From contig CALHNS010000009.1 of the NCBI GenBank assembly GCA_938035125.1, positions 88,565-152,564 on the forward strand: DNA of 64,000 nucleotides, given 5' to 3'. The stretch comes from an uncultured Granulosicoccaceae bacterium (GTDB lineage: Bacteria > Pseudomonadota > Gammaproteobacteria > Granulosicoccales > Granulosicoccaceae). Positions 4,947 through 53,489 of this stretch are shown one piece after another; within the stretch, counting starts at the first letter, position 1, and each line of letters starts with the position of its first letter. The position numbers were made by a program, and so were the translations under genes. A model generated the notes under the pieces. That model was not told the origin of the DNA. It saw nothing but the letters and a program-made list of their open reading frames with translations, and made no database searches.

Positions 4947-5756
4947 CTACCCAAACAGTCGCTTGAAGAATCCTTTCTTACTTTGTTCCATAAATCGATG
5001 CGGTTTATTTTCACCCATCAATCTATCGATCGCATCGCCATAGGCTTGACCCGCTTCACTTTCGTCATCGAGGATGACGGGCTTACCAGCGTTTGATGAT
5101 TCCAATACGGTTTGCGATTCTGGAATGATCCCCAGCAGCGGTATAGCCAGTAGATCAACAATGTCATCAACACTGAGCATCTGCCCTTCTTTAACACGAC
5201 CGGGGTTATATCGCGTGATCAGCAAGTGCTCTTTAACCGGCGATTCGTTCATTTTTGCCCGCTTAGATTCACTTTGCAAAATGCCTAAGATTCGGTCCGA
5301 ATCTCTAACAGAGGACACTTCAGGGTTGGTAGTGATGATGGCTTCATCGGCAAAATACAGCGCCATTTTGGCACCTTTTTCGATGCCCGCAGGGGAATCG
5401 CAGATGATGTAGTCAAAATCACTCTTTTTTAACTTATGAATAACCCGCGCGATGCCCTCGATGGTTAAGGCATCTTTATCGCGAGTTTGAGAAGCTGGGA
5501 GAATGTATAGATTGTCAATGCGCTTATCTTTAATGAGCGTTTGGTGCAGGCTACTTTCCTGATTCACCAAGTTCACCAGGTCGTAAACCACGCGACGCTC
5601 GCAACCCATGATCAGATCTAGGTTTCTAAGGCCCACATCAAAATCGATCACCACGGTTTTGAAGCCTCGTTGCGCAAGGCCCGTAGCGATAGAGGCACTG
5701 GTGGTCGTTTTTCCTACGCCGCCTTTGCCCGACGTCACAACGATTGTTTTGGTCAA
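4947..5756 (-). CDS. minD: septum site-determining ATPase MinD
   Basis: Membrane-cycling ParA/MinD-type ATPase that recruits MinC and MinE. The deviant Walker A motif GKGGVGKTT starts near residue 10. Further on are DFDVGLRNLDL, the ICDSPAGIE switch and the C-terminal amphipathic membrane helix SKKGFFKRLFG. No ATG is available at the start. The frame opens at a TTG (5771), but a second TTG at 5756 has GGGAG 8 bases before it and gives 269 aa beginning MTKTIVVTSGKGG. That aligns residue for residue with E. coli MinD (270 aa), so I choose it. Family assignment is certain; the exact start is likely but inferred. Confidence 0.96.
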   Translation of the reverse strand: MTKTIVVTSGKGGVGKTTTSASIATGLAQRGFKTVVIDFDVGLRNLDLIMGCERRVVYDLVNLVNQESSLHQTLIKDKRIDNLYILPASQTRDKDALTIEGIARVIHKLKKSDFDYIICDSPAGIEKGAKMALYFADEAIITTNPEVSSVRDSDRILGILQSESKRAKMNESPVKEHLLITRYNPGRVKEGQMLSVDDIVDLLAIPLLGIIPESQTVLESSNAGKPVILDDESEAGQAYGDAIDRLMGENKPHRFMEQSKKGFFKRLFG

Positions 5757-5792
5757 GCTCTCAACTCCCAAAAAAAATGTCTTACCAACTTT

Positions 5793-6695
5793 TTAAAGCG
5801 GCTCTATGTTGAGCCTTTCATCATCAAGCCAGATTTGCGCAGGTTTGCCACGTAAATCTTCCGGTATTGATTCCAGTACTCGGTAATTCCCAGCCACTGA
5901 AACCAATTCAGCTTCTAGCGACTGACAAAAAATTCTTGCTTCTGTATTGCCCGACACCCCACACAATGCCCGGCCCCTAAGTGGCCCGTATACATGAATG
6001 TGGTTATCCGCAATTACCTCTGCCCCCGGCCCAACCTGACCCATTATAATGAGATCGGTATCGCGAGCATACACTTGTTGCCCTGAACGTACTGGCCGCC
6101 TTAAGAGCTGCGGCTGTTTAACAATATACTGTACTTCTTGCGCAGATAATGGCTCAAGCTCTGCATCTAGCTCAACGTCGGGGCTATCAACGGCACCTGC
6201 CGCAGCCTCAACATTATCATCAGAGTTATCGTCAGAATCCTCTTTGGCGCTTTCACCACCGGCATTCTCGTTACTGCTGCCACTATTTGTCAATGAGGCA
6301 TCTGTATTACTGCGGTTGGCAGCATCGCTACTCTCATCGTTCTGCTTCGCCGAATCGTTCTCAGCAGACGTTTTGGAACGCCTTGCTACGCCTTCAATCA
6401 ACGGCAAGGTCAATTGTTGAGCAACTTCGCCACTTTTATCCACCACACTGGCAACAATTGGCACCAAATGATGCGCTTTGATACGCTCTAATATGGCAGC
6501 CGTATCCAGTGAGTTATCGGCAGCATCAAGATCGGTAAAGTCAACAACCACCGGAGTATCTTTAAAGAAACCGGGCGCTTGCAGAACCTTATCCGCTATG
6601 CGCTGGTCAATTGTGTCGATATCACCTGTATAAAGTTTGAGCGACATAAAGGTGTACATTCCACCTTTGAGTTCGACGTCCAGTTTTCGCGGCAA
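5793..6695 (-). CDS. minC: septum site-determining protein MinC with long acidic linker
   Basis: FtsZ antagonist recruited to the membrane by MinD. The N-terminal FtsZ-inhibiting domain (about residues 1-105) is joined to the C-terminal beta-helix domain (about 190-300: [32 protein letters not shown]). The linker of about 75 residues is almost entirely Asp, Glu, Ser, Asn and Ala; E. coli MinC (231 aa) has a much shorter one. An ATG at 6737 is in frame. However, a TTG at 6695 preceded by AGAGG with 8-base spacing gives an N-terminus that aligns with E. coli MinC (both lead directly into VELKG/IELKG), so I prefer it (300 aa). It is the first gene of the min operon. Confidence 0.92.
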
Positions 6696-6829
6696 AGCTA
6701 AAGTCCTCTTTATAAACCGTAACTCACTTTGCAGCATTTCCTAAGTGAGCTTCCTACGGTTTGCATATTCTAAAGCATTAACGCGATGACATGAACTTGA
6801 CGGTTAGTTATTTGCGTAGACTTTTGTAA

Positions 6830-7924
6830 ATGCAGATGTTTCGAAAAATCATACATATCGACATGGATGCTTTTTACGCATCCGTTGAGCAACGCGACAA
6901 CCCCGAACTTCGTGGTTTAGCTGTTGTTGTGGGTGGGAAACCGCAAGGGCGCGGGGTGGTTGCCGCTTGCAGTTATGAGGCCCGAAAATTCGGTGTTCAT
7001 TCCGCTATGCCCAGTGCCACAGCCTATCGGCTTTGCCCTGACGCAATATTCATCCGGCCTCGATTTGAAGCCTATCAAGCGGTATCTGAAGAGGTGCAGC
7101 AAATTTTCCGCGAATACACGGACCAGATTGAGCCCTTGTCGCTAGACGAAGCCTACTTGGATGTAACTGGCAGCGACTTATTCGAAGGCTCTGCGCTAAG
7201 AATTGCCCAAGACATTCGCCGAGTGATTTTGCAACGCACAAAATTAGTGGCATCGGCAGGTGTGTCTTACAACAAGTTTTTAGCAAAAATTGCCTCAGAC
7301 ATTGATAAGCCCAATGGCTGCCGCTGCATATTGCCGAACGAAGGTGAAGCGTTTGTACAAACTTTACCCGTCAAACGCTTCCACGGTGTTGGCCAAGCCA
7401 CCGAAAATCGAATGCATTCTCTTGGCATTGAAACAGGACAAGACTTACGCAAATGGTCACTGATTGAGCTGCAAAAAGAATTCGGTAAATCGGCTGATTA
7501 TTACTTCAACATTGCTCGTGGTATTGATCATCGGCCAGTACGAGTAGAACGCACTCGTAAATCTATGGGCAGTGAACGAACCTTCGGTGAAAACTTAATC
7601 CATCGAGACGAGATGCTGGTTGTATTGCAAGATTTATCCAATCGTTTAATAACGAAATTAGATGAACGGCACTTAAGTTCTCACACCTTGAACGTAAAAC
7701 TTCGCTACGCTGATTTCACCACACTAACCCGTGCTCATAAACTAACTCACGGCGTATTCAACCAACATTCTGCTCTGCGTACCTTACCGTTCTTGCTCGA
7801 TCGATGTTTGGCACAACGACCTGTAAAAGGCCCACCACAGGTACGACTATTAGGTGTGTCATTCAGCGGGCTATGCCCGTCAGATGATGAGCGTCCAGAG
7901 CAATTGGATATGCCGTTTATATAA
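6830..7924 (+). CDS. dinB: DNA polymerase IV (Y family)
   Basis: Error-prone translesion DNA polymerase. The 364-aa protein has the Y-family catalytic motifs IIHIDMDAFYASVEQRDNP near the start and LSLDEAYLDVT near residue 105, the VASAGVSYNKFLAKIASD palm motif, a GVGQATENRM thumb HhH and a little-finger domain. It ends in a short clamp-binding type sequence (EQLDMPFI). An ATG at 6836 is an equally good start and aligns better with E. coli DinB; no strong ribosome binding site precedes either. I see no LexA box of the CTGT-N8-ACAG kind in the 92 bases between it and minC. Confidence 0.96.
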   Translation: MQMFRKIIHIDMDAFYASVEQRDNPELRGLAVVVGGKPQGRGVVAACSYEARKFGVHSAMPSATAYRLCPDAIFIRPRFEAYQAVSEEVQQIFREYTDQIEPLSLDEAYLDVTGSDLFEGSALRIAQDIRRVILQRTKLVASAGVSYNKFLAKIASDIDKPNGCRCILPNEGEAFVQTLPVKRFHGVGQATENRMHSLGIETGQDLRKWSLIELQKEFGKSADYYFNIARGIDHRPVRVERTRKSMGSERTFGENLIHRDEMLVVLQDLSNRLITKLDERHLSSHTLNVKLRYADFTTLTRAHKLTHGVFNQHSALRTLPFLLDRCLAQRPVKGPPQVRLLGVSFSGLCPSDDERPEQLDMPFI

Positions 7925-17633: not shown

Positions 17634-17821
17634 GTATCATCTGCGGTGTTTGTTATCTTGCTGGGTATATCCCTTGAGCCTATTTTCGCACCCCGGGAAC
17701 GGCTCGGTCACTGTTGTTGTGCACGTCCGCTACGGCGGAAAGCCTGATACGGTTCCGGCTGATCCCACTTGAGCCACTTGGTTCAAGGTAGCACACTTGA
17801 GACGGCACTCGTGGTTGATAC
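17634..17821 (+). ncRNA. ssrS: 6S RNA (SsrS)
   Basis: Regulatory RNA that mimics an open promoter and holds sigma70 RNA polymerase in stationary phase. It lies exactly where E. coli ssrS does, between zapA and the folate cyclo-ligase gene. Recognisable blocks include TATATCCCTTGAGCC, ACGGCTCGGTC and the 3' arm CTTGGTTCAAGGTAGC with a following CTTGAGACGGC. The ends are placed where GTATCA (17634-17639) can pair with TGATAC (17816-17821), giving 188 nt against 184 in E. coli. The ends could be off by a few bases. Confidence 0.85.
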
Positions 17822-42338: not shown

Positions 42339-43218
42339 CCAACTGCTTAAGAATTACCAGAATCGTGTAGATCGTGTTCTGCTCGATTTACTGCCACCGG
42401 TAAACAGCAGCAACACTCAGTTGCCTGCAGCCATGCGTTACGCCGTCACGGTGGGCGGTAAACGCGTTAGGCCCAGCCTAACCTACGTTACCGGCCAAGC
42501 CTTAGGTGTGCCGTTAGAACGATTAGATGTGCCCGCGGCATCCGTTGAAATGCTACATGCCTATTCTTTAGTCCACGACGACTTACCCGCCATGGACGAC
42601 GATGATTTACGACGCGGCCAGCCCACATGCCACATCAAATTTAACGAAGCTACCGCGATCTTAGCTGGCGATGCCTTGCAAGCTTTAGCGTTTACTATTC
42701 TTGCGAACAATGAAGATGCCGTCATCACCACCGATGACAAACTGCGCATGGTGAAAGTGCTCGGCGATGCCAGTGGGTCAGCAGGAATGGCCGTTGGTCA
42801 GGCAATTGACTTAGAGTCTGTAAACGAATCACTGACCATCGAGCAATTGGAAAACATGCACCGACATAAAACCGGTGCTTTAATTCGTGCCAGCGTTGCC
42901 ATGGCAGGCTTAGCCGCCGATTCACCAACTGACGAATTAATGGCACGACTTGATCGTTTCGCCTCCGCCATAGGTCTTTGTTTCCAAATTGTCGATGATA
43001 TCTTGGATGTGGTGGCTGACACCGATACACTGGGCAAGCAGCAAGGCGCTGATATTGCGCTGAACAAGCCAACGTACCCTGCACTATTAGGGCTGGACGG
43101 CGCTCGTGAGCATGCAGCAGAAATGCATCAGTGTGCTTTGTCTGAATTAGAAGGCCTGGGTCCACAGTTCGATGAACTGCGGCAAGTGGCCAACTACATT
43201 ACCAAGCGTGGCCATTGA
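42325..43218 (+). CDS. ispA: farnesyl diphosphate synthase (polyprenyl synthetase)
   Basis: Condenses isopentenyl diphosphate with allylic diphosphates to farnesyl diphosphate; 297 aa from the ATG at 42325, inside the xseB end. The first Asp-rich motif is [14 protein letters not shown] (FARM, near residue 87) and the second [11 protein letters not shown] (SARM, near 227), with GGKRVRPSL near the start. The short-chain type is supported by length and by the operon with xseB and dxs. Confidence 0.95.
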
Positions 43219-43225
43219 GTTACCA

Positions 43226-45112
43226 ATGGATATAGCCAGCCAATTTCCGCTGCTAAGCCAGATCGACAACCCAGCAGATTTACGCAAACTGGAGATTGGC
43301 GAACTGCCTGAAGTGAGCAAAGAACTGCGCCAATTCTTAATAGAATCGGTAGCGCGTACCGGTGGGCATTTTGGCTCTAGCCTTGGCACCATCGAACTAA
43401 CCGTCGCTTTGCATTATGTTTTCAACACCCCTTACGACAAACTCGTATGGGATGTAGGCCATCAAACCTACGGTCATAAAATTTTAACGGGCCGCAAAAA
43501 TCGTATGAACACCATGCGAATGGCCGATGGCTTAGCCCCGTTTCCAAAACGCGAAGAAAGTGAATACGATACGTTTGGTGTTGGCCATTCCAGCACTTCG
43601 GTTAGCGCGGCATTGGGTATGGCCATTGCCGCCCAGCAAGAAGCCAAGATCAATCCTGGCATTGCAACGCGAAAAGCCATTGCTGTTATTGGTGATGGCG
43701 CGCTCACCGCAGGCTTAGCTTATGAAGCATTGAATCACGCTGGCGGATTAAGAACCGACATGTTGGTTGTGTTAAACGATAACGATATGTCTATCTCACC
43801 TAATGTGGGTGCGATGAATCGTTATCTTGCACGTTTACTTACTGGGCCTATCGTTTCAGGGGCACGTGAAGGCAGTAAAAAAGTGTTGAGTAAAACCCCA
43901 CCGCTGTTTGAATTTGCCAAACGCACAGAAGAACAAGTAAAAGGCATGGTCGTTCCATCGTCCATGTTTGAAGAATTGGGGTTTAACTATTACGGCCCAG
44001 TTGATGGGCATGATGTTGAAGGTTTAGTAGCCGTCATGCAAAACATGAAAAACTTATCTGGCCCCTTGTTTTTGCATGTGGTAACCAAAAAAGGATACGG
44101 CTATAAGTTTGCTGAAGAAGATCCACTAGCGTTGCATGCAGTTACCCCTTTTGATCCTGCAACCGGCAAAAGCTTAAAACAAGGGAGTGGCAGTAATCGC
44201 CCCACCTACACCAAAGTATTTGGAAATTGGTTGTGCGACATGGCTGAAAACGATAAGCGCATCGTGGGGATAACGCCTGCCATGCGTGAAGGTTCTGGCA
44301 TGGTGGAATTTGAACAGCGTTTCCCTGATCGTTATTTTGATGTGGGAATTGCTGAACAACATGCGGTAACGCTTGCCGCAGGCCTAGCTTGTGGTGGCCA
44401 AAAACCCGTAGTAGCCATTTATTCCACTTTCCTGCAACGCGCATACGATCAATTAATCCACGACGTTGCTGTGCAAAATCTACCGGTTGTGTTTGCTATC
44501 GATCGTGCAGGTTTAGTTGGCCCAGACGGGCCCACACACGCAGGAGCTTATGATTTTAGTTTCCTTCGCTGCATTCCTAATATGACCATCATGGCACCGG
44601 CAGATGAAAATGAATGTCGCCAGATGTTGTACACAGCAACGTGTATGGATTCACCATCCTCGGTTCGATACCCTCGTGGCCATGGCCCAGGTGTTGACGT
44701 TGATATGGAAATGACAGAACTTCCCATTGGCAAAGCTGAGCTGCGTCGCACAGGAACTGGCACAGCCCTTTTAGCATTCGGCTCTATGGTTGATGTTGCG
44801 ATGGAAGTGGGCGAGGCGCTGAACATGACAGTGGTTAATATGCGTTTTGTTAAACCACTAGATAATAACTTGTTAGATGAACTCGTTAAAACGCACAAGC
44901 GTTTTATAACGATAGAAGAGAACGCTATTGCCGGTGGCGCAGGCGCAGGTATTGTTGAATACATCGCCGGTGAGCATTGCAGCTTTCCCGTATCCATTAT
45001 TGGGTTAACCGATGATTACATAGAGCACGGATCACGGGAAGAATTGTTGGCTCGGGCTGGGTTGGATTTGGCTGGGGTTACTGATCAGGTTCAGCAGGTT
45101 TTGGCTCAATAG
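43226..45112 (+). CDS. dxs: 1-deoxy-D-xylulose-5-phosphate synthase
   Basis: Thiamine-diphosphate enzyme joining pyruvate and glyceraldehyde 3-phosphate, the entry to the MEP isoprenoid pathway. The ATG at 43226, 7 bases after the ispA stop, gives 628 aa. Motifs: [36 protein letters not shown], the TPP-Mg site [18 protein letters not shown] with [12 protein letters not shown], and the catalytic Glu in [19 protein letters not shown]. Followed by a repeat-rich gap. Confidence 0.97.
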
Positions 45113-45145
45113 GCTGACATTGCAGCCGGCATCGTCGTTGGGGCC

Positions 45146-45222
45146 GACACATAGCGCAATGCAATTCCAAAACTGGGGTGCTGTGAACCCGTCCATGGGG
45201 GCTTCGCAGCCGCATCCTTGCG
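45146..45222 (+). repeat. truncated copy of the 116-bp inverted-repeat element
   Basis: Begins GACACATAGCGCAATGCA and follows the full element at 45229-45344 closely through the ATGGGGGCTTCGCAGCCGCATCC block. It stops before the right terminal repeat, at the point where the next full copy begins. Both copies are preceded by GGGCC. Confidence 0.85.
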
Positions 45223-45228
45223 CGGGCC

Positions 45229-45344
45229 GACACTTAGTGCAATGCAAATCCAAAACTGGGGCGCCGTGAACCCATCCATGGGGGCTTCGCAGCCGCATCC
45301 TTGCGGCTGAGACCCAGTTTTGGATTTGCATTGCGCTAAGTGTC
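45229..45344 (+). repeat. 116-bp element with 32-bp terminal inverted repeats (left of ovoA)
   Basis: Left end GACACTTAGTGCAATGCAAA... (45229-45260) and right end ...TTTGCATTGCGCTAAGTGTC (45313-45344) are inverted repeats with one mismatch in 32. The 52-base core holds two smaller hairpins, GCCGCA/TGCGGC and CCCAT/ATGGG. There is no room for a transposase gene. A second 116-bp copy lies in opposite orientation beyond ovoA. It is MITE-like or a long palindromic intergenic repeat. Confidence 0.9.
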
Positions 45345-45553
45345 TGGTTTTTTGTGTTGGAGGTGTATTCGAAAAATATTTTGCTTGATTAAAGCTATTG
45401 GGTAGTTGGCCCTTGATAGCAAAAATACGTGTTTTTGTTTTCATGCTTTTGTGAAATTAGCGAAGGTTTTTTCATCGCTGTTATTTATGAACTTAACGCT
45501 TTTATGGATATCTGATTTTTTTCCAAAAAATAAAGATTCTTGCAAAAGCAAAA
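45345..45553. other. AT-rich upstream region of ovoA
   Basis: No gene is seen. The region becomes strongly AT-rich toward ovoA and must hold its promoter. I see no clear -35/-10 pair and no purine-rich ribosome binding site before the ATG (only AAAGCAAAA). Confidence 0.5.
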
Positions 45554-47743
45554 ATGAACAACACTTCGACACCTAGCAATTCTGTTAATGAAGATTCACA
45601 AGAGTTAAAAAACAAGAATATTAAGAATGCGCCTGCGGCGTTAGTTACTAAAACGACTCTGCTTGATGGTAGTGATGCAGAATTAAAACGCGAAGAAATT
45701 TTGCACTATTTCCATCAAACTTTTTCATTGTATGAGAGTTTGTTCGAATGTCTTTCAAGCGATGAATCTTATTACCAACGGGCTAGCCCTCTCCGTCATC
45801 CCTTAATTTTCTATTATGGCCACACGGCAGTTTTCTTTGTTAACAAGCTGAACGTAGCCAATTTGATTGATCATCGAATTGATGCCGATTTGGAGTCGTC
45901 TCTGGCTATTGGTGTTGACGAGATGTCTTGGGATGATTTAAACGATAAAAGTTACGACTGGCCTTCGCCTGCAACTGTGAAGGCATATCGTGATAAGACA
46001 CGTGAGTTAGTGGATAACTTTATTCGCATTTGCGATATTACGTTGCCCATCCAATGGGATGATCCTTTATGGATCGTAATGATGGGCATAGAACATGAGC
46101 GTATTCATCTTGAGACTTCATCTGTTCTTATTCGAGAACTGCCGCTGGCGTATGTTCAACCGAACAAACTATGGGGCAATATTTGCCAGACTACCGGCAA
46201 AGCGCCAACAAACGAGCTCTTGTCAGTAGAAGGTGGCTCAGTGGTTATTGGCAAGTCAAAAGATGACCCACTGTATGGGTGGGATTTGGAATACGGCAAA
46301 CAAACCCATCAAGTGGACGACTTTAAAGCCAGTAAATACTTAGTCAGTAATGCCGAATATAAAGAATTTATGGATGCGGGTGGTTACACCACGCAACGTT
46401 ACTGGACTGAAGAAGGTTGGGGGTGGGTGCAATACCGAAAAGCCACCATGCCGGTATTCTGGCAACGCGATGGCGAACAGTATAAGTATCGCACCATGCT
46501 AGAAGAAATTGATATGCCGTGGGATTGGCCAGTAGATTTAACCTACTTAGAATCAAAGGCATTTTGTGAATGGAAATCTGAGGTCACGGGTAAATCCATT
46601 CGTTTACCATCCGAGGCGGAGTGGTATCACTTACGAAAATTAGTGGATACCGACCAACCCTTTTGGAACAATGCACCTGGCAACATAAATTTAGAATACG
46701 ACATGTCGTCTTGTCCGGTGAATAGACATGAATGCAAAGGCGGCTTTTTTGACATCATTGGTAACGTATGGCAATGGACAGAATCACCTATTGATGCGCT
46801 GGCTGGCTACGAAGTGCACCCAGCTTATGATGACTTTTCTACACCCACTTTCGATGGTAAACACAACATTATCAAAGGAGGTTGTTGGATCTCTACGGGT
46901 AATTACGCCATTAAAGATTCTCGCTATGCCTTCAGACGTCATTTTTATCAACATTCAGGCATGCGCTACGTTGAAGCCAACCCCTTACCCGAGATCAAAA
47001 TGAATCTTTATGAAATGGACGACATGGTGTCGCAGTACATTGAATTTCACTATGGCGAAGAATATTTTAATGTTCCCAATTTCCCAGTGGCTTGCATTCA
47101 ACACAGTATGAATGCTGCAAAAGGTGGGGCAACGGGCAAAGCGTTAGACTTAGGCTGTGCTACAGGCCGATCTAGCTTTGAATTGGCCAAACACTTTGAT
47201 CATGTCGATGCGTTAGATTTTTCAGCTCGCCTTATTCAAGCCCCTACCGAACTACAAAGCTCAGGCCTGCAGCGATACGCGATTCAAGATGAAGGCGACA
47301 TTGTCTCCTTTAAAGAAATATCGCTAGCCCAATTCGGGTATGAAGATGTGAAAAACAAAGTCAATTTCATGCAAGGCGATGCGTGCAACTTACCTGAAAA
47401 ATTTAACGGTTACGATCTTGTATTCGCTGGCAATCTCATCGACAGACTGTACGACCCAAAGCAATTTCTGGAACTGATTAAGGGGCGTATTAATCCTGGT
47501 GGCTTTTTGGTAATTACATCCCCATACACTTGGCTGGAGTCTTTTACAGAGAAAGACAAATGGCTAGGTGGTTTTAAAGCCAATACGGGGGAAAACTTTA
47601 CTACCCTAGAGGGTATTGGGCAGGCATTGCTGCCTGAATTTGAGCAACATCAAAAGCCCATTGATGTGCCATTTGTAATTCGAGAAACTCGCCGCAAGCA
47701 TCAACATACGGTGGCGGAGTTATCGGTTTGGCGAAAGGTTTAA
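45554..47743 (+). CDS. ovoA: ovothiol synthase OvoA (5-histidylcysteine sulfoxide synthase with methyltransferase domain)
   Basis: Non-haem iron enzyme that joins cysteine and histidine with oxygen to give 5-histidylcysteine sulfoxide, here fused to the SAM methyltransferase that N-methylates 5-thiohistidine to ovothiol A. The 729 aa contain a DinB_2-like iron domain (about 50-205), an FGE-sulfatase-like domain (about 225-480, GGSVVIGKSKDDPLYGWDLE, NVWQWTESP, RHFYQHSGMRYVEA) and a methyltransferase domain (about 520-729, LDLGCATGRSS). The iron ligands are His90 (YYGHTAVFF) and the HxxxHxE at His181/His185. The three-domain layout separates it from ergothioneine EgtB, which lacks the methyltransferase. 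It is a single gene flanked by inverted repeat elements. The partner lyase OvoB is not in the window. Confidence 0.95.
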   Translation: MNNTSTPSNSVNEDSQELKNKNIKNAPAALVTKTTLLDGSDAELKREEILHYFHQTFSLYESLFECLSSDESYYQRASPLRHPLIFYYGHTAVFFVNKLNVANLIDHRIDADLESSLAIGVDEMSWDDLNDKSYDWPSPATVKAYRDKTRELVDNFIRICDITLPIQWDDPLWIVMMGIEHERIHLETSSVLIRELPLAYVQPNKLWGNICQTTGKAPTNELLSVEGGSVVIGKSKDDPLYGWDLEYGKQTHQVDDFKASKYLVSNAEYKEFMDAGGYTTQRYWTEEGWGWVQYRKATMPVFWQRDGEQYKYRTMLEEIDMPWDWPVDLTYLESKAFCEWKSEVTGKSIRLPSEAEWYHLRKLVDTDQPFWNNAPGNINLEYDMSSCPVNRHECKGGFFDIIGNVWQWTESPIDALAGYEVHPAYDDFSTPTFDGKHNIIKGGCWISTGNYAIKDSRYAFRRHFYQHSGMRYVEANPLPEIKMNLYEMDDMVSQYIEFHYGEEYFNVPNFPVACIQHSMNAAKGGATGKALDLGCATGRSSFELAKHFDHVDALDFSARLIQAPTELQSSGLQRYAIQDEGDIVSFKEISLAQFGYEDVKNKVNFMQGDACNLPEKFNGYDLVFAGNLIDRLYDPKQFLELIKGRINPGGFLVITSPYTWLESFTEKDKWLGGFKANTGENFTTLEGIGQALLPEFEQHQKPIDVPFVIRETRRKHQHTVAELSVWRKV

Positions 47744-47760
47744 TAAACACCTTTAATGCT

Positions 47761-47792
47761 GGGGCCGAAACTTAGCGCGATGCAAATACTTA
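47761..47792. repeat. solo end fragment of the 116-bp element
   Basis: GGGGCCGAAACTTAGCGCGA and the following TGCAAAT resemble GGGGCC plus the left terminal repeat of the element, followed 32 bases later by another GGGGCCGAAAC that opens the full copy at 47799. Confidence 0.7.
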
Positions 47793-47798
47793 GGGGCC

Positions 47799-47914
47799 GA
47801 AACTTAACGTGAGTCTAATCCAAGACTGGGTCTCAGCCGCAAGGATGCGGCTGCGAAGCCCCCATGGATGGGTTCATGGCGCCCCAGTTTTGGATTTGAC
47901 TCGCGTTAAGTGTC
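47799..47914 (-). repeat. 116-bp element with terminal inverted repeats (right of ovoA, inverted)
   Basis: Same length as the copy at 45229-45344. The 52-base core (47831-47882) is the reverse complement of the left copy's core with one difference in 52. The terminal repeats (47799-47830 and 47883-47914) share AAGTGTC-type tips and CAAAACTGGG-type inner ends with the left copy but have diverged in between (ACTCGCG against GCATTGCG). Confidence 0.9.
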
Positions 47915-47948
47915 TGAGTGTTAGAGAGCTTGGGCTTGAACGGGAGGT

Positions 47949-49697
47949 TTACCGCCCTAGTGCTACTCCTTCGCGCCTTGGGTCGGCTCCACCCATCAGC
48001 TTTCCATCATCAATAATAATGGCGTGCAAGCCTGAGGTTAGGCTTCGAAGGTTTACTTCATAACCGATGGCTTCTAACTCGGCTTGCAAGCTTTCAGAGC
48101 CGGTGCCTTCTTCTAAATCATAAGTACCGAACCGATTAACGGCATGAGGCATGCTGAGTGCATCTTGTGCGTTCATACCCCAATCTAGATGGGCGATGAT
48201 GGCTTGTGCTACGTAACCAATGATACGGCTACCACCAGGTGAACCTACCACCATATAAGGCTTACCGTCTTTCATCACAATGGTGGGTGCCATGGAGGAT
48301 CGCGGGCGTTTACCGGGTTCAACTCGGTTTGCGATGGGTATGCCTTCTTTATGGGTGGCGAATGAGAAATCGGTTAATTCGTTGTTTAACAGAAAACCTC
48401 CGCTCATTAAACGCGAACCAAAACCATTTTCTATGGTGGTGGTGATCGATACCGCATTGCCATCGGCATCAACAATAGAAAAATGGCTTGTGGATTTAAA
48501 TTCAATACTTTCATCATCAGCCAGAAGCATAGCGTGATCCCATTCAGGAGAACCCGCGGCCACTTCTTCAAGTGCTTTATCACCTTCTAATAATGCTGCT
48601 CGTTCAGCTAAGTAAGACTTCGCTACTAAACCTTCTGTCGGCATGGGCACAAAATCACTGTCGGCCATGTAACGCCCACGATCGGCAAACGCTAACCGCG
48701 AGGCATCACCAATTAAACGCCAGCTTTCAACAGACGTTGGCCCCAATGCTTTTAAATCATACGAATTTAGTGTTCCAAGAATTTGCCCAACCGTTAAGGC
48801 GCCAGAGGAAGGTGGACCCATACCGCACACATCATGCTCACGGTAGTTTACGCACACGGGCTCTCGCTCTTTAATGTTGTAGTTGGCCAGATCGGCCATG
48901 GCCAAAACGCCTGGATTACCAGCGCTTTGCACTTTATCGACTATGCCTTGTGCGATAGGTCCTGTATAAAAAGCATCGGCACCACCTTTTGCTACCTTCG
49001 TTAGTGTTTCAGCGTATTCAGGGTTTTTCAGTAGATAACCCACAGGATGCGGATTGCCATCATCACCGAAGAAATACGCTTTTGTATCTGGGTGAACGGA
49101 CAATCGTTCAATATCATTGCTAATTGATTCGTGCATACGAGCTGACACTTCAAACCCACTGTTTGCAAGATCAATAGCAGGTTGCACTAAAGCATCCCAG
49201 CTCATACTACCGTGCAACTTGTGCGTCTCGTACATTAATTTCAGCGTACCAGGCGTGCCCACTGATCGGCCACCCACAACAGCATCCCAAAATTTTAACT
49301 TCTCGCCATTGTCATCTTGAAATAACAACGGTGTCGCTGCCATCGGTGCGGTTTCACGACCATCGTATGTGGTCAAGGCCTTATCTTTAGCGTTGTAATA
49401 CACGAGAAAGGCGCCGCCACCTAATCCAGAAGACTGCGGTTCCACTAAACCTAAGATGAGCTGGGTTGCCACCATTGCATCTATAGCGTTACCCCCATTA
49501 GATAGAACACGAAGCCCGGCTTCAGCGGCATAAGGGTTGGCTGCAGCGACCATAAAGTTTTCTGCTACTACCATTGGCGCTGATGAAATACTTGTTGCGA
49601 TTTCAGGTGCAAAACCGTCTGCAACCTCTTGCGCGTTCGCACCCACTGAACAGATTAAAAGCGATCCAAGTGCTACGTTGCGTATCTTAAATGGCAT
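47949..49697 (-). CDS. ggt: gamma-glutamyltransferase
   Basis: Periplasmic enzyme that hydrolyses or transfers the gamma-glutamyl group of glutathione and related thiols. The 582-aa precursor (signal peptide ending near GANAQ) is cleaved autocatalytically before Thr403 in STSHFSIVD, the nucleophile of the small subunit. Other motifs: VLSNGGNAIDAMVATQ, GLGGGAFLVYY, GRETAP, FGSRLMSGGFLLNNE, SSMAPTIV and GSPGGSRII. AGGT lies 7 bases before the ATG. It converges on ovoA across a repeat element. As ovothiol and glutathione are both low-molecular thiols, the neighbourhood may be meaningful. Confidence 0.95.
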   Translation of the reverse strand: MPFKIRNVALGSLLICSVGANAQEVADGFAPEIATSISSAPMVVAENFMVAAANPYAAEAGLRVLSNGGNAIDAMVATQLILGLVEPQSSGLGGGAFLVYYNAKDKALTTYDGRETAPMAATPLLFQDDNGEKLKFWDAVVGGRSVGTPGTLKLMYETHKLHGSMSWDALVQPAIDLANSGFEVSARMHESISNDIERLSVHPDTKAYFFGDDGNPHPVGYLLKNPEYAETLTKVAKGGADAFYTGPIAQGIVDKVQSAGNPGVLAMADLANYNIKEREPVCVNYREHDVCGMGPPSSGALTVGQILGTLNSYDLKALGPTSVESWRLIGDASRLAFADRGRYMADSDFVPMPTEGLVAKSYLAERAALLEGDKALEEVAAGSPEWDHAMLLADDESIEFKSTSHFSIVDADGNAVSITTTIENGFGSRLMSGGFLLNNELTDFSFATHKEGIPIANRVEPGKRPRSSMAPTIVMKDGKPYMVVGSPGGSRIIGYVAQAIIAHLDWGMNAQDALSMPHAVNRFGTYDLEEGTGSESLQAELEAIGYEVNLRSLTSGLHAIIIDDGKLMGGADPRREGVALGR

Positions 49698-49768
49698 GTT
49701 TATACCTGCGTAAGGGTTCTTCGGAAGTCCTTAGTCAAACACATTCGCAGAATAAATGAAAGAACGGC

Positions 49769-50458
49769 TTAACCTGAAACGTATCGCTTGATTAATGTGG
49801 CCACGCTTTCAGCATTCAATACTGGTGGAAAAAATGTCTGAAGTTTGCCATCAGGACCCATCAAATAAAAATAAGACTGATGAGATACCACAGCACTTTC
49901 AGCTAGCTCAAAATCTAGTACGGAAGGTTTTTGTTTATAGGCTTTGTAAACCGGCTTCAATTCATCCAAAGTACCCGTTAGGCCTATCAAAGCCGCGTGA
50001 TAACCCGCTAGACTATTTTTCAAAACCTCAGGCGTATCGTTAGCAGGATCTACTGTTATCACTAGTGGGTTAATTTTTTCTAATGGTTTATCGATATCGT
50101 TTTCTAAAATGGTTAGTGCATCCGCAATGCGCTTTAACGATATAGAACACATGATTTGGCAATTGCTGTATCCGAAAAACACTAACATGTGTTTTCCAGC
50201 ATAAGTTTGATCGGTTACGGGTTGCCCTAAATGATTAGTTAGCGAGAACGGACCACCAATACTGGCTATTTCTGCTGGCAATACGTTATTGGTGGTAGCC
50301 ACTTCAACAGACACACCTGAATCGTCGTGGTTTTCACCATCGTGCGCATGAACAACATTCAATCCGTTGCCGATGAGAATGACCATGGCCGCTAACCACA
50401 GATTAAATTTAGATGAATATCGAACCATTCGCTTTAGTTTCAATTGAAGATACAACAA
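49769..50458 (-). CDS. SCO1/SenC family copper-binding thioredoxin-like protein
   Basis: Membrane-anchored periplasmic protein of the SCO family, which delivers copper to cytochrome oxidase or other cuproenzymes or acts in thiol redox. The 229-aa protein has an N-terminal hydrophobic anchor (about 20-40), a His/Asp-rich start of the mature part (HAHDGENHDD), the thioredoxin fold with GKHMLVFFGYSNCQIMC and the distant His in VVSHQSYFYLMGPDG. Two Cys three apart plus this His are the SCO copper ligands. The start could also be the ATG at 50428. It is the last of three leftward genes for exported proteins. Confidence 0.9.
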   Translation of the reverse strand: MLYLQLKLKRMVRYSSKFNLWLAAMVILIGNGLNVVHAHDGENHDDSGVSVEVATTNNVLPAEIASIGGPFSLTNHLGQPVTDQTYAGKHMLVFFGYSNCQIMCSISLKRIADALTILENDIDKPLEKINPLVITVDPANDTPEVLKNSLAGYHAALIGLTGTLDELKPVYKAYKQKPSVLDFELAESAVVSHQSYFYLMGPDGKLQTFFPPVLNAESVATLIKRYVSG

Positions 50459-50462
50459 CCGA

Positions 50463-51005
50463 TTATTGAAAATATTCTTGATCGGCTTCTACACCTAAAC
50501 CTAACCTGCCATCGCGCTCAAGTATGGTTTTCACTCTATCGTCATTGTCATACCACCGACTCGCCACAGACAAAGGCTGGCCAGTTCGTTCTGACCAAGC
50601 TTGCAAATAGCGAGTCGCTTTCAGCCATTTGCCTCCGGGCTGACGAACATTTTGCACTTGAAAAAACTTAACGCCTTGATGTTCGGTAAACAACCCGTTA
50701 ACTTCAACTGTTTCTGCACAAAACGGCCATAACTCATCCACAGCACCTGAGTAAAAATTAAGATTCTTTGCAGCTAATACGGTTCCAAATTCTTCAGTTT
50801 TTACGGCTAACTGCCGCTTGCCTTCACCGCAGTTATCGGCACAATTTCCGGTAAGCTCACACTGCACATCCACAACAGTACCTACAAATCCATTTTTCTC
50901 AGCATTGGTAACTGGCCAATTGTCGATCCCACCAGGACCAGCTGCACAACCTGTTAACCCAACGCACAACGCTGCCATAACTACATGCCATGTTTTCTTG
51001 ACCAT
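50463..51005 (-). CDS. uncharacterised cysteine-containing lipoprotein
   Basis: I do not recognise the family. From the ATG at 51005 the protein is 180 aa with a lipoprotein signal (MVKKTWHVVMAALCVGLTGC; lipobox LTGC near residue 21). The frame upstream to 51092 would bury the signal. The mature part has four further Cys, three of them close together in VQCELTGNCADNCGEG, and a later FCAETVEVNGLF. Alternating beta-type stretches suggest a small barrel (OB-like), in the style GxVVDVxC ... VEVNGLF ... FFQVQNV. It starts the pair with the SCO gene 4 bases downstream and is probably in the same transcript. A periplasmic metal or redox role is inferred from cysteines and neighbours only. Confidence 0.75.
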   Translation of the reverse strand: MVKKTWHVVMAALCVGLTGCAAGPGGIDNWPVTNAEKNGFVGTVVDVQCELTGNCADNCGEGKRQLAVKTEEFGTVLAAKNLNFYSGAVDELWPFCAETVEVNGLFTEHQGVKFFQVQNVRQPGGKWLKATRYLQAWSERTGQPLSVASRWYDNDDRVKTILERDGRLGLGVEADQEYFQ

Positions 51006-51147
51006 AACGTTTGCATAATTCACTGTACTGACTCCACTAACTAAAACGATATTTAGATGACGGCGGGATCGATTCAACCACGATTGGTTCAACCATTACC
51101 GGATCAATTTTGCGTGCGAACACAACGCTCTTTAACCTTTTCGAGCG

Positions 51148-51669
51148 CTACGGGCGAGCATCCCCAGGCACTATGCCGAATTTCTCGTGGGATAGATTCA
51201 CAATGCCATGGTCAGTAACCACTTCATCGATGTTTACGTAATTAAGCCCATCTAACTCAAACACCGTTCCTGTGATGGTGAGCTCTCTGCTTTGCAGATC
51301 AAGAACTTTATCATTAGCTACGCTGGTATCGTCGCCTTCAAAAGACAACACCATATACACTTTGTTGTCCTCCTTATTCAGCAAACCAACGGGAATACCC
51401 CCAGCGGCACACCAAACCGCGCATACGTGATGCGCTGTGCCAGTCACGGCTGCCGAAGAACCCATAATTTGCGAAACATAGCACCAAGTATCAATCATCT
51501 CACCTGTCATGGTGACTTTTTTGCCATCTATGGCTTGAACCTGAGTTGGCATAATGGCACTTAACAATACAGCCGCAGCGCCTACATAAACTGAAGATCG
51601 CGCTGAACGTGCTGAACGCATTAAATTGGCCAAAGCTTGTGTGAAGCCGTTAATTGATTTTATGTTCAT
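51148..51669 (-). CDS. uncharacterised secreted Cys/His protein
   Basis: Not a family I can name. The 173-aa protein has an N-terminal hydrophobic signal (about 27-46, cleavage near VQA-ID). The conserved-looking core GEMIDTWCYVSQIMGSSA, GTAHHVCAVWCAAGGIPVG has three Cys and two His in about 35 residues, a possible metal or haem site. It is followed by LTITGTVFELDGLNYVNIDEV. The GEMIDxWC ... ITGTV ... YVNI layout parallels the lipoprotein gene downstream (GTVVDVQC ... VNGLF ... FFQVQ), so the two may share an OB-like fold. First of three leftward genes ending in SCO1. Confidence 0.72.
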   Translation of the reverse strand: MNIKSINGFTQALANLMRSARSARSSVYVGAAAVLLSAIMPTQVQAIDGKKVTMTGEMIDTWCYVSQIMGSSAAVTGTAHHVCAVWCAAGGIPVGLLNKEDNKVYMVLSFEGDDTSVANDKVLDLQSRELTITGTVFELDGLNYVNIDEVVTDHGIVNLSHEKFGIVPGDARP

Positions 51670-51822
51670 TGAGATTATTCTATGTAAAGTGGTGTTTGCG
51701 CCTGATTTTCTCGTGGCACAAAAAATCTAACGTTAATCAAATAGTTATTGAAATTTATAACAACAAACTCTGCCACTGTAAAGGCGATATCAAAATCGTA
51801 TACTTTCTGGTGGCAGATTAAG

Positions 51823-52089
51823 TTATCGCAGCTGGCTGTCTTTACTTCCACGGCGGTTGTAACCTACGTTGGCTGATTGCTTAGCATCGGCAGTTTCTTG
51901 GCAAACGATGCACAATTGCACGCCAGGTACGGCATGCCTTCGCTTTTCAGGAATTTCTGCGTCGCACTCAATGCAATGGGTTAAGCTATCGCCTTGTGGC
52001 AATTGGTTGCGTATGCGACTTACGGCATCATTTAACGAATCATCGATTTGATCTTGCACTGCCCCATCTTTTGCAAATCCGCCAGCCAC
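51823..52089 (-). CDS. DksA/TraR-type zinc-finger protein (YbiI-like)
   Basis: Small C4 zinc-finger protein similar to E. coli YbiI. From a GTG at 52089, with GGGGAAA upstream, it is 88 aa, the same length as YbiI. Features: GGFAKDGAVQDQIDDSLNDAV, SLTHCIECDAEIPEKRRHAVPGVQLCIVCQE (four Cys, about 35-65). The frame extends to 52167 but overlaps the next gene. It lacks the long coiled coil of DksA, so direct RNA polymerase channel action is doubtful. Confidence 0.87.
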   Translation of the reverse strand: MAGGFAKDGAVQDQIDDSLNDAVSRIRNQLPQGDSLTHCIECDAEIPEKRRHAVPGVQLCIVCQETADAKQSANVGYNRRGSKDSQLR

Positions 52090-52138
52090 TGCATTTTCCC
52101 CAAATAAAAACGTTGTTGCCATTGCCATTAAAACCAGC

Positions 52139-52474
52139 TTAAACACGTGATAAATCAGCAGCCGCAATAAGTAGCTCAGTTAAATAAGGTTTATCGATAT
52201 CGTAAACACTAACAAAATTTACATGCCGCCGAACCTTGCCCTTACCTTGTAGCATTTTTTCAGGATCAGTTAACTTAGCCCCCTGGCTGAATACAACCTG
52301 CACGTGATTTTCGTATGAAAACAACCCACAAAACTGTCCTTCTTTTTGTTCAGGGTTTAAAGTGAACAGAACACCGCCGTATTTTTCCAGCGTATCGGCT
52401 GTCGGAACAGCCTTAAGTATGATTTGGCTTAATTCATTAATCAGCAATGCTTTGTCTTGCTCATTCATGTGCAT
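52139..52474 (-). CDS. DUF1801 domain protein
   Basis: Small cytoplasmic protein of unknown function, 111 aa. DUF1801-like marks are LEKYGGVLFTLNPEQKEGQFCGLFSYENHVQVVFSQGAKL (about 29-68) and the closing KVRRHVNFVSVYDIDKPYLTELLIAA. Its stop is downstream of the zinc-finger gene's chosen start, so the two may be coupled. Confidence 0.8.
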   Translation of the reverse strand: MHMNEQDKALLINELSQIILKAVPTADTLEKYGGVLFTLNPEQKEGQFCGLFSYENHVQVVFSQGAKLTDPEKMLQGKGKVRRHVNFVSVYDIDKPYLTELLIAAADLSRV

Positions 52475-52577
52475 TCGTGCTCAACTGGCCTGTATTGAGT
52501 CGTTAAAGTGCAATCAAAGTTAAAGTGCAATCTATAACCACTATAAGCTCATTAAGTCGTCTTTTCAAAACAGTCCT

Positions 52578-53378
52578 TCAAACGGTTGCTTCAGCATCTC
52601 CGGCAACCGCTTTACCCGTAATGGCATACCATCGACTAGCCGTATGTGGCTTTAACACTTCCACCCGTTCAGGGTTTGTTGACACACTGGCAAGCACAGC
52701 ATCAAGCGCGCATTGTTCGGTATTATTTTTTTCACTTAAGTGCCCTAACAAAATACACTCAAGTGCTGGGTGGTCAACAGCACGAACTACAGGGCCTGCC
52801 TGAAGATTGCCAAGATGGCCAAAGTTCCCTCGTATGCGATGCTGCAAGCTGGGTGGGTAAGGCCCGTTTCTCAACATATCATCATCGTAATTACATTCGA
52901 TGAGCATCCCGTTTACTCCTGCTAGCTTACTTAATACAAATGGCGGGCACACACCCATATCCGTTGCCACAACAAAACTTACCTTGTCTTTTCGTACAAC
53001 GAACTGGCAGGATTCAGCCGCATCGTGCGGGGTGGGGAATGGGTCAATTTCTAAATCCCCCAGTGTAAAAGGTGCATGCGCATGAAAAAGCTCATAAGAC
53101 AATAAGCGATCATCTTTTAACCGCCTGAAGGTTCCGTGAGTTAAGTAGATGGGAACACCGAACTTACGAGACAAAGGCCCGATGCCTTTCACATGATCGC
53201 CGTGTTCGTGGGATATCAACACAGCGGATAAATCCGAAGGAGCCACGCCAAGGGAGGCCATCCGCTTCAACGTTTCTTTAAGAGTGAATCCGCAATCGAT
53301 CAATACCGTGGTTTTAGCGGAACGAACAAGGGTTGCGTTACCCGTACTGCCACTACCTAAAGAGGCAACCTCTAACAT
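52578..53378 (-). CDS. MBL-fold metallo-hydrolase (YycJ/WalJ-like)
   Basis: Cytoplasmic beta-lactamase-fold hydrolase, probably of the nuclease/phosphodiesterase type; 266 aa from the ATG at 53378. Metal site motifs: SLGSGSTGNATLV, the HEHGDH signature in LISHEHGDHVKGI, PHDAAESCQFVV, DMG and a C-terminal HLSEKN with HTASRW. The substrate is unknown. It follows bamC in the same direction with about 110 bases between them. Confidence 0.88.
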   Translation of the reverse strand: MLEVASLGSGSTGNATLVRSAKTTVLIDCGFTLKETLKRMASLGVAPSDLSAVLISHEHGDHVKGIGPLSRKFGVPIYLTHGTFRRLKDDRLLSYELFHAHAPFTLGDLEIDPFPTPHDAAESCQFVVRKDKVSFVVATDMGVCPPFVLSKLAGVNGMLIECNYDDDMLRNGPYPPSLQHRIRGNFGHLGNLQAGPVVRAVDHPALECILLGHLSEKNNTEQCALDAVLASVSTNPERVEVLKPHTASRWYAITGKAVAGDAEATV

Positions 53379-53489
53379 TCGCCAACACAAACGTTACGCA
53401 CTGCCGCGACAGCGATAAAACAACCACTATCAATTTTCATTGACTTATTGCTTACAGCGGTTGGAACAAAGGTACTGCCACTCAATGGC

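What the first reader, a model, noticed from the sequence alone, without database searches (positions are those of the whole stretch)
45146..47914. ovoA is bracketed by near-identical 116-bp palindromic elements in opposite orientation
The copies at 45229-45344 and 47799-47914 have equal length, 32-bp terminal inverted repeats and 52-base cores that differ at one base when one is reverse-complemented. A truncated copy (45146-45222) and a solo end (47761-47792) lie beside them, so the site has been hit more than once. The arrangement could have mobilised or inverted the ovoA segment, or could simply mark favoured insertion points of a non-autonomous element. I know of no named family that this matches.
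Basis: partly seen in the sequence, partly recalled or inferred. Interest (0 to 1): 0.7.

Follow-up and report, generated by a model that had tools for sequence, protein, structure and literature searches.

The report
Mobile repeat carrying CsrA-like decoy hairpins
The two 116-base palindromes beside the ovothiol gene ovoA are copies of a repeat scattered through many bacterial genomes (120 matches in one), whose conserved tip is predicted to fold into two RNA hairpins that likely bind the global regulator CsrA; their bracketing of ovoA is likely a coincidence.

Summary
The palindromes are real, but only their ~60-nt cap is conserved elsewhere; the arms differ between copies yet stay self-complementary. 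The cap forms two adjacent hairpins with ANGGAY-type loops (51 of 60 distinct genus caps) and compensatory stem changes. This is the architecture of Rfam TwoAYGGAY (RF01731): 22 matches at E<=0.01 in 14 genomes, one above the gathering score, though the ovoA copies themselves do not match. Gardner and Eldai predicted that TwoAYGGAY binds CsrA. Arm mismatches on the GGA strand are mostly G.U, not A.C (85:16 and 66:27), so that strand is the one selected to fold. The family is dispersed and mobile: 33 of 185 class genomes, 120 matches in Desulfopila IMCC35006 with 10-bp target duplications, and presence/absence at orthologous MAG sites. At ovoA both elements have the same end orientation; copy 2's cap is flipped. 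Each follows a plus-strand gene (dxs, ovoA). None of nine other OvoA-positive genomes has the repeat, so an ovoA-mobilising unit is not supported. CsrA binding is inferred; no mobiliser was found.

The parts
45229..45344 (-). complete element, copy 1 (cap, i.e. the GGA-loop strand, on minus); stem arms 45229-45260 and 45313-45344
45256..45317 (-). conserved double-hairpin cap of copy 1 (model R1, 87.8 bits)
47799..47914 (+). complete element, copy 2: same end orientation as copy 1 on the + strand, cap inverted (GGA strand on plus)
47826..47887 (+). conserved double-hairpin cap of copy 2 (model R1, 89.1 bits), 83 nt behind the ovoA stop codon
45146..45222 (-). truncated copy directly before copy 1 (cap on minus; R1 45.3 bits over 45173-45231)
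47761..47792 (.). solo left end before copy 2 (begins GGGGCCGAAACTTAG like the other left ends)
45348..45353 (+). T6 run right after copy 1 on the strand of dxs; possible terminator tail
   Evidence: read; the terminator scan does not report it (its loop limit is 3-8 nt)
43172..45112 (+). dxs, the gene that copy 1 follows
   Evidence: TIGR00204, 888 bits
45554..47743 (+). ovoA, the gene between the elements, which copy 2 follows
   Evidence: TIGR04344, TIGR04345 over cut-off
47949..49697 (-). gamma-glutamyltransferase gene, convergent to ovoA
   Evidence: TIGR00066

Best explanation
The 116-bp units are copies of a dispersed, mobile palindromic repeat of the TwoAYGGAY RNA type, whose conserved cap is predicted to fold into two GGA-loop hairpins on a long stem and, when transcribed, would likely bind CsrA as a decoy. 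Shown here: the dispersion, the target duplications in Desulfopila, presence/absence at orthologous sites, the paired but variable arms, the covarying cap, the strand-specific G.U tolerance, and RF01731 matches at and below threshold to sister copies. Inferred: transcription of the GGA strand, CsrA binding, and any benefit to host or element. At ovoA the bracketing is likely incidental: one element lies behind dxs and one behind ovoA, in the same orientation by their ends. The cap of the second is inverted within its own arms (probable route: recombination or template switching between the arms), which would place the GGA hairpins in the ovoA 3' untranslated region. Copy 1 with its T6 run may also serve as a terminator for dxs.
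For: Cap found apart from the arms. Covariation 11 of 19 pairs, 96.4% of cells paired against 33-48% when slid. C-A(N)GGA(Y)-G in both hairpins in 51 of 60 distinct genus caps. RF01731: (22 matches, 15 of them at listed R1 places; one of 22 above gathering). G.U 85 to A.C 16, and 66 to 27; 64:17 and 22:11 after clustering arms. Dispersion. Mobility: 10-bp duplications, 6 of 10 Desulfopila copies exact and 4 of 10 with one mismatch (read); presence/absence sites. CsrA genes: 3 in G000, present in 24 of 26 other positive genomes. CsrA prediction for TwoAYGGAY: PMC4333381. Cap flip: foot on the opposite strand only in copy 2 among 49 genus copies. No tie to ovoA.
Against: No transcript or binding data. 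The ovoA copies themselves give no RF01731 match at E<=10, and one search listed none in six further loci (one of them, L199, does match; filters differ). The caps lack the leading A of the SELEX consensus. In the genus most elements lie antisense to the gene that reads towards them (43 of 52; 35 of 43 intervals), so read-through from it gives the non-GGA strand; no orientation bias elsewhere (32 of 61). CsrA is common anyway, and two positive genomes showed none. After the strictest clustering the named-genome G.U excess is only p 0.08 (sign test 10:2, p 0.04). No mobilising enzyme found.
Confidence: 0.55

Rival explanations
1. The unit is a MITE or REP-like DNA repeat: the hairpin matters only as single-stranded DNA for transposition, and the GGA loops are contacts of a transposase or recombinase with no link to CsrA.
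For: Mobility; conserved asymmetric foot A|G..C|GG across unrelated arms resembles the end tags of GTAG-type REPs (PMC3733652, abstract and outline); single-stranded DNA also tolerates G.T.
Against: Y1 transposase (RAYT) is absent from 11 of 15 carriers searched, among them G005, G059, G060, G061, G063, G064 and G071. Conserved AYGGAY-type loop pairs match a CsrA site and an RNA family.
Confidence: 0.28
2. The element is mainly a transcription terminator placed at gene ends.
For: In the genus the gene downstream of the cap is convergent in 43 of 52 cases, 35 of 43 intervals after thinning; T6 follows copy 1; the 12 nt before the foot hold 5.6 A on average against 3.8 further out.
Against: No orientation bias (32 of 61) and no A-run (2.5 against 3.3) in the named genomes. 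G.U tolerance favours the strand that the neighbouring gene does not read. Copy 2 has no T-run on either side.
Confidence: 0.1
3. One reading: the pair of elements moved or inverts the ovoA segment as a composite unit.
For: ovoA sits in a ~7.4 kb lineage-specific block; opposite caps flank it.
Against: Ends are in direct, not inverted, orientation; the right end of the block bears no element; none of 9 other OvoA-positive genomes has the repeat and 6 of 6 tested R1-positive relatives lack OvoA.
Confidence: 0.04

Closest known systems
TwoAYGGAY RNA (Rfam RF01731; Weinberg et al. 2010, PMC2864571, passage seen)
   Same: Two adjacent hairpins with AYGGAY-type loops on a longer, poorly conserved outer stem; 22 matches in 14 genomes, 15 of them at listed R1 places.
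   Different: Second hairpin shorter, with a UUCAY bulge; mostly below the gathering score; ovoA copies not matched. In the passages I saw it is not described as a mobile high-copy repeat (the supplement was not seen).
CsrB/RsmY/RsmZ-type CsrA-sequestering RNAs
   Same: GGA in hairpin loops, in pairs (PMC4333381 and PMC4383904, passages).
   Different: Those are single-locus sRNAs (recalled); here two sites per unit and many dispersed units; binding untested.
MITEs
   Same: Short, no gene, inverted arms; 10-bp target duplications in Desulfopila.
   Different: No convincing target duplication in the other sets, no parent element found, arms differ between copies instead of being one fixed terminal repeat.
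GTAG-tagged REPs mobilised by RAYTs (PMC3733652, abstract and outline)
   Same: Dispersed palindromes at gene ends with an unpaired tag at the foot; often (C/G)(T/C)A|G here.
   Different: REPs are 20-40 bp by that abstract; this unit is 110-177 nt from foot to foot with a conserved cap; RAYT absent from 11 of 15 carriers.

Membership tests
TwoAYGGAY (RF01731) | covariance-model score at or above gathering (43 bits) | tested here: inconclusive
   1 of 22 matches over it (43.8 bits), the rest 30.9-38.8 bits; none for the ovoA copies
TwoAYGGAY (RF01731) | two adjacent hairpins with AYGGAY-type loops on an outer stem | tested here: met
   (loops are ANGGAY, not strictly AYGGAY)
CsrA-binding decoy RNA | GGA in hairpin loops, paired sites | tested here: met
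   51 of 60 distinct genus caps; 63 of 67 in the named set, but that set was fetched by a pattern demanding these letters
CsrA-binding decoy RNA | transcribed and binds CsrA | not testable with these tools
   needs RNA-seq, gel shift or CLIP; csrA present in 24 of 26 other positive genomes and in G000
MITE | target-site duplication | tested here: inconclusive
   10-bp in Desulfopila, 6 of 10 exact, 4 of 10 with one mismatch; not convincing in 41 named and 32 genus copies
MITE | autonomous parent with the same terminal repeats | tested here: not met
   Desulfopila: 11 exact terminal-repeat matches; the one far from a listed core (L274) has no transposase-like ORF beside it that I could recognise; other ten not searched for genes. 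G000: no other copy of the ovoA-type arms
RAYT-mobilised REP | Y1 transposase in the genome | tested here: not met
   4 of 15 genomes have PF01797; G000 and G005 lack it
ovoA composite mobile unit | elements associated with ovoA in relatives | tested here: not met
ovoA invertible segment | both orientations of the segment in reads | not testable with these tools
   no reads on hand

The most novel reading that the evidence does not exclude
A mobile palindromic repeat spreads by carrying decoys for a host master regulator: each copy, when transcribed, yields a stem capped by two CsrA sites, so that its copy number (120 matches in one genome) sets the cell's free CsrA level. The cap can flip inside its own arms and so switch which strand, and which neighbouring mRNA (here ovoA), carries the decoy.
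Probability: 0.28. Interest if true: 0.85.

Novelty: new variant of a known kind. Interest (0 to 1): 0.55.

Why it matters
TwoAYGGAY is an Rfam family whose proposed CsrA role was untested in the papers I saw. Finding it as the conserved cap of a mobile, high-copy repeat with unrelated arms, in many gammaproteobacterial MAGs and in one Desulfopila genome, makes a question testable: can a selfish repeat titrate a global regulator, and does its copy number tune CsrA control? The case also shows how short palindromes around a gene can be misread as a mobile cassette.

Tried and rejected
Rejected or led nowhere. Rfam at gathering on the whole window: only 6S RNA. RF01731 on the ovoA stretch at E<=10: no match; six further loci: no match at E<=1. 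Plasmid and phage searches with copy 2 in 'distant' mode: no match (weak tests, since only the ~60-nt cap can match); viral contigs with an exact pattern: 0. RAYT/Y1 as general mobiliser: rejected, absent in 11 of 15 carriers. Target duplications outside Desulfopila: none convincing (a small excess of 4-5-nt repeats in the named set, 4 of 41 with 5 nt or more against a mean of 0.7 and a maximum of 4 in 200 shuffles). Parent element in Desulfopila by exact terminal repeat: none seen (the pattern is strict). Integron attC sites: considered because of GTTAAGT/ACTTAAC in copy 2, dropped since copy 1 lacks them and no array is present (recalled rules, no call). Terminator scan: its loop limit cannot see these hairpins. 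Candidate empty sites that were not clean: L088:7247 leaves a remnant in L089, L089:5275 is ambiguous, L121:5700 is occupied in both genomes; at L136:1601 the partner lacks about 37 nt more than the unit. Presence/absence could be deletion as well as insertion. Literature: searches (listings) showed no paper on dispersed CsrA-hairpin repeats; PMC9788540 (abstract and passages) is about two single CsrA-related sRNAs; the library lacks most subscription papers.

Caveats on counts. R1 matches per genome are lower bounds (at most 94, 150 or 29 candidates scored per genome), and the tallies include G000 itself. The 15 of 15 were chosen because the pattern had hit them. R1 was built from copies similar to the window core, and the 70 named stretches were fetched by a pattern that demands GGATG and CANGGANG, so loop conservation in that set is by construction; arms, feet and G.U/A.C counts are not. 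Dropped rows: one search used 47 of 62 genus and 71 (70 distinct) of 73 named copies, the rest failing the paired-arm test; one search used 49 genus and 59 named copies (12 Desulfopila rows left out); one search used only copies with the foot, so its columns at the foot are 100% by selection. The weak match L111:2946 (18.1 bits) was left out of the later scripts. ORFs for the orientation counts come from a simple longest-ORF rule, not a gene finder. The first outside search used the whole 116-bp unit.

Full report
OBSERVATION. Copies 45229-45344 and 47799-47914 are 116 nt, 88% complementary over their length, with cores one base apart. The GGA strands of both fold far better than shuffles (z -10.3 and -11.7, 0 of 200 each). 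Two details need correction. The arms of the two copies are not near-identical. And the asymmetric bases outside the palindrome (GGGGCC left of the truncated copy, the solo end and copy 2, GCGGGCC left of copy 1; TGTCTG at the right of copies 1 and 2) point the same way in all, so only the cap of copy 2 is inverted.

WHAT IS CONSERVED. In the window's own genome the full unit occurs only at ovoA; five other places (two on C108, one on C46, two on C50) share just ~58 nt of the middle. Their arms are other sequences that are again self-complementary. The same holds in relatives and in named genomes. A covariance model of the middle (R1), built on 24 copies, has 11 of 19 pairs with changes on both sides and 96.4% of cells paired against 33-48% when slid. 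The middle consists of two adjacent hairpins with ANGGAY-type loops; C-A(N)GGA(Y)-G stands in both in 51 of 60 distinct caps of the genus set.

IDENTITY. Rfam's TwoAYGGAY (RF01731) aligns to some of the repeats at 35.2 and 29.8 bits. In 14 carrier genomes it gives 22 matches at E<=0.01 in 8 genomes, the best 43.8 bits with a gathering score of 43, the other 21 below it. Fifteen of the 22 lie on R1 places listed; the other seven (five in G071, one each in G061 and G063) are not among the listed R1 places, whose lists were cut. Against this: the ovoA copies give no RF01731 match at E<=10 and six further loci none at E<=1. Weinberg et al. 2010 list the motif as a probable RNA from human gut, gammaproteobacteria and Clostridiales (PMC2864571, one passage). 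Gardner and Eldai found CsrA-site matches in it and proposed CsrA sequestration (PMC4333381, passages). The SELEX consensus of CsrA, RUACARGGAUGU with GGA in a hairpin loop, is from PMC4347634 (passages); the caps share CANGGAUG but not the leading A.

WHICH STRAND. If the arms were kept only as a double-stranded palindrome, G.T and A.C mismatches should be equally common on either strand. On the strand with GGA loops they are 85 G.U type to 16 A.C type (47 genus copies) and 66 to 27 (70 distinct copies from named genomes). After clustering arms at 60% identity the counts are 64:17 (37 arms, p 1e-7) and 22:11 (23 arms, p 0.08; sign test 10 to 2, p 0.04). So the GGA strand is the one whose folding is selected, as RNA or possibly as single-stranded DNA.

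MOBILITY AND SPREAD. R1 matches: 12 of 57 genomes (own and relatives) at E<=0.01; 33 of 185 class genomes, own included, at E<=1e-5; 15 of 15 genomes picked because the pattern scan had hit them, with 120 in Desulfopila sp. IMCC35006, 90 and 82 in two gammaproteobacterial MAGs and 28 in an uncultured Pseudohongiella chromosome. These are lower bounds. In Desulfopila the unit sits in a ~172-bp element with CTGATTAC..GTAATCAG ends and 10-bp target duplications, exact in 6 of 10 copies and with one mismatch in 4 (read). In the MAG set the unit has sharp ends (GCACnnYGTGA|G..C|GGATCGAAGCCAC) and no convincing target duplication. Two orthologous sites lack the unit in a related MAG: L088:3635 against L089, with tight junctions, and L136:1601 against L082, where about 37 nt of flank are missing too; a third keeps a remnant and others were unclear. 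No viral, plasmid or phage match.

ENDS. Across unrelated arms the stem foot is A|G..C|GG on the GGA strand in 32 of 49 genus and 41 of 59 named copies (Desulfopila left out), against about 2% by a rough chance estimate; it is on the other strand in one copy of each set. The genus one is copy 2 of the window; the other is L094. Both are explained by inversion of the cap between its own arms; this is inference from the ends.

THE ovoA SITE. dxs, ovoA and gamma-glutamyltransferase were confirmed by profile. Each complete element follows a plus-strand gene in the same end orientation and is preceded by a truncated piece. In 16 of the 19 genus relatives whose dxs locus was fetched, dxs is directly followed by a homolog of the minus-strand gene at window 52581-53393, so a block of about 7.4 kb with ovoA, ggt and a SCO1/SenC gene is specific to this lineage; its right end bears no repeat. 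Of 39 genomes searched 10 have OvoA, own included. None of the nine fetched OvoA loci of genus relatives shows dxs or ggt in the flank held, some flanks being cut by contig ends. None of the 9 other OvoA-positive genomes has an R1 match, and 6 of 6 R1-positive relatives tested lack OvoA. The bracketing is therefore most likely incidental. Across the two locus sets, 10 of 10 adjacent oppositely oriented caps within 3 kb face outward, the ovoA pair and one weak match included; 13 further adjacent pairs have the same orientation. I have no full explanation; in the genus it goes with caps lying opposite to genes that read towards them.

HOW IT WOULD WORK. Inferred: a transcript of the GGA strand folds into a long stem with two CsrA sites at its tip; many copies act as a dispersed sink, or mark single mRNAs. 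Copy 2's flipped cap would put the pair 83 nt behind the ovoA stop. CsrA is encoded in G000 (three matches) and in 24 of 26 other positive genomes, compatible but weak evidence. Against a fixed cis role: genes next to the caps in the window's genus mostly read the other strand (35 of 43 intervals), and there is no bias elsewhere (32 of 61).

VERDICT. New variant of a known kind: a TwoAYGGAY-type RNA as the cap of a mobile high-copy palindrome. The CsrA decoy is the best reading but untested.

Noticed in passing
window 45113-52580: A ~7.4 kb block (ovoA, gamma-glutamyltransferase, a SCO1/SenC gene and others) separates dxs from the metallo-beta-lactamase-fold gene at 52581-53393; in 16 of 19 genus relatives these two are adjacent.
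   Followed up: partly
window 17635-17821 (+): 6S RNA gene (RF00013, 71.9 bits).
   Followed up: no
   Followed up: partly
L020 (G000:C50) 5376-7372: A HipA-like gene (5515-6792, minus) lies between two outward-facing elements, much as ovoA does.
   Followed up: no
L093, L115 (Desulfopila): A second Desulfopila element type with similar outer ends but other inner arms and cap; in L093 it lies next to the first type.
   Followed up: partly
loci L078, L106, L107, L116, L142: Sequences like CGCAGAATGACGG stand just left of several MAG elements, as if another repeat family were an insertion neighbour.
   Followed up: no
L019 1478-1542 and L021 563-627: Two contigs of the window's genome (C108, C46) carry the same element with similar flanks inside a ~235-aa open frame, probably a segmental duplication.
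   Followed up: no
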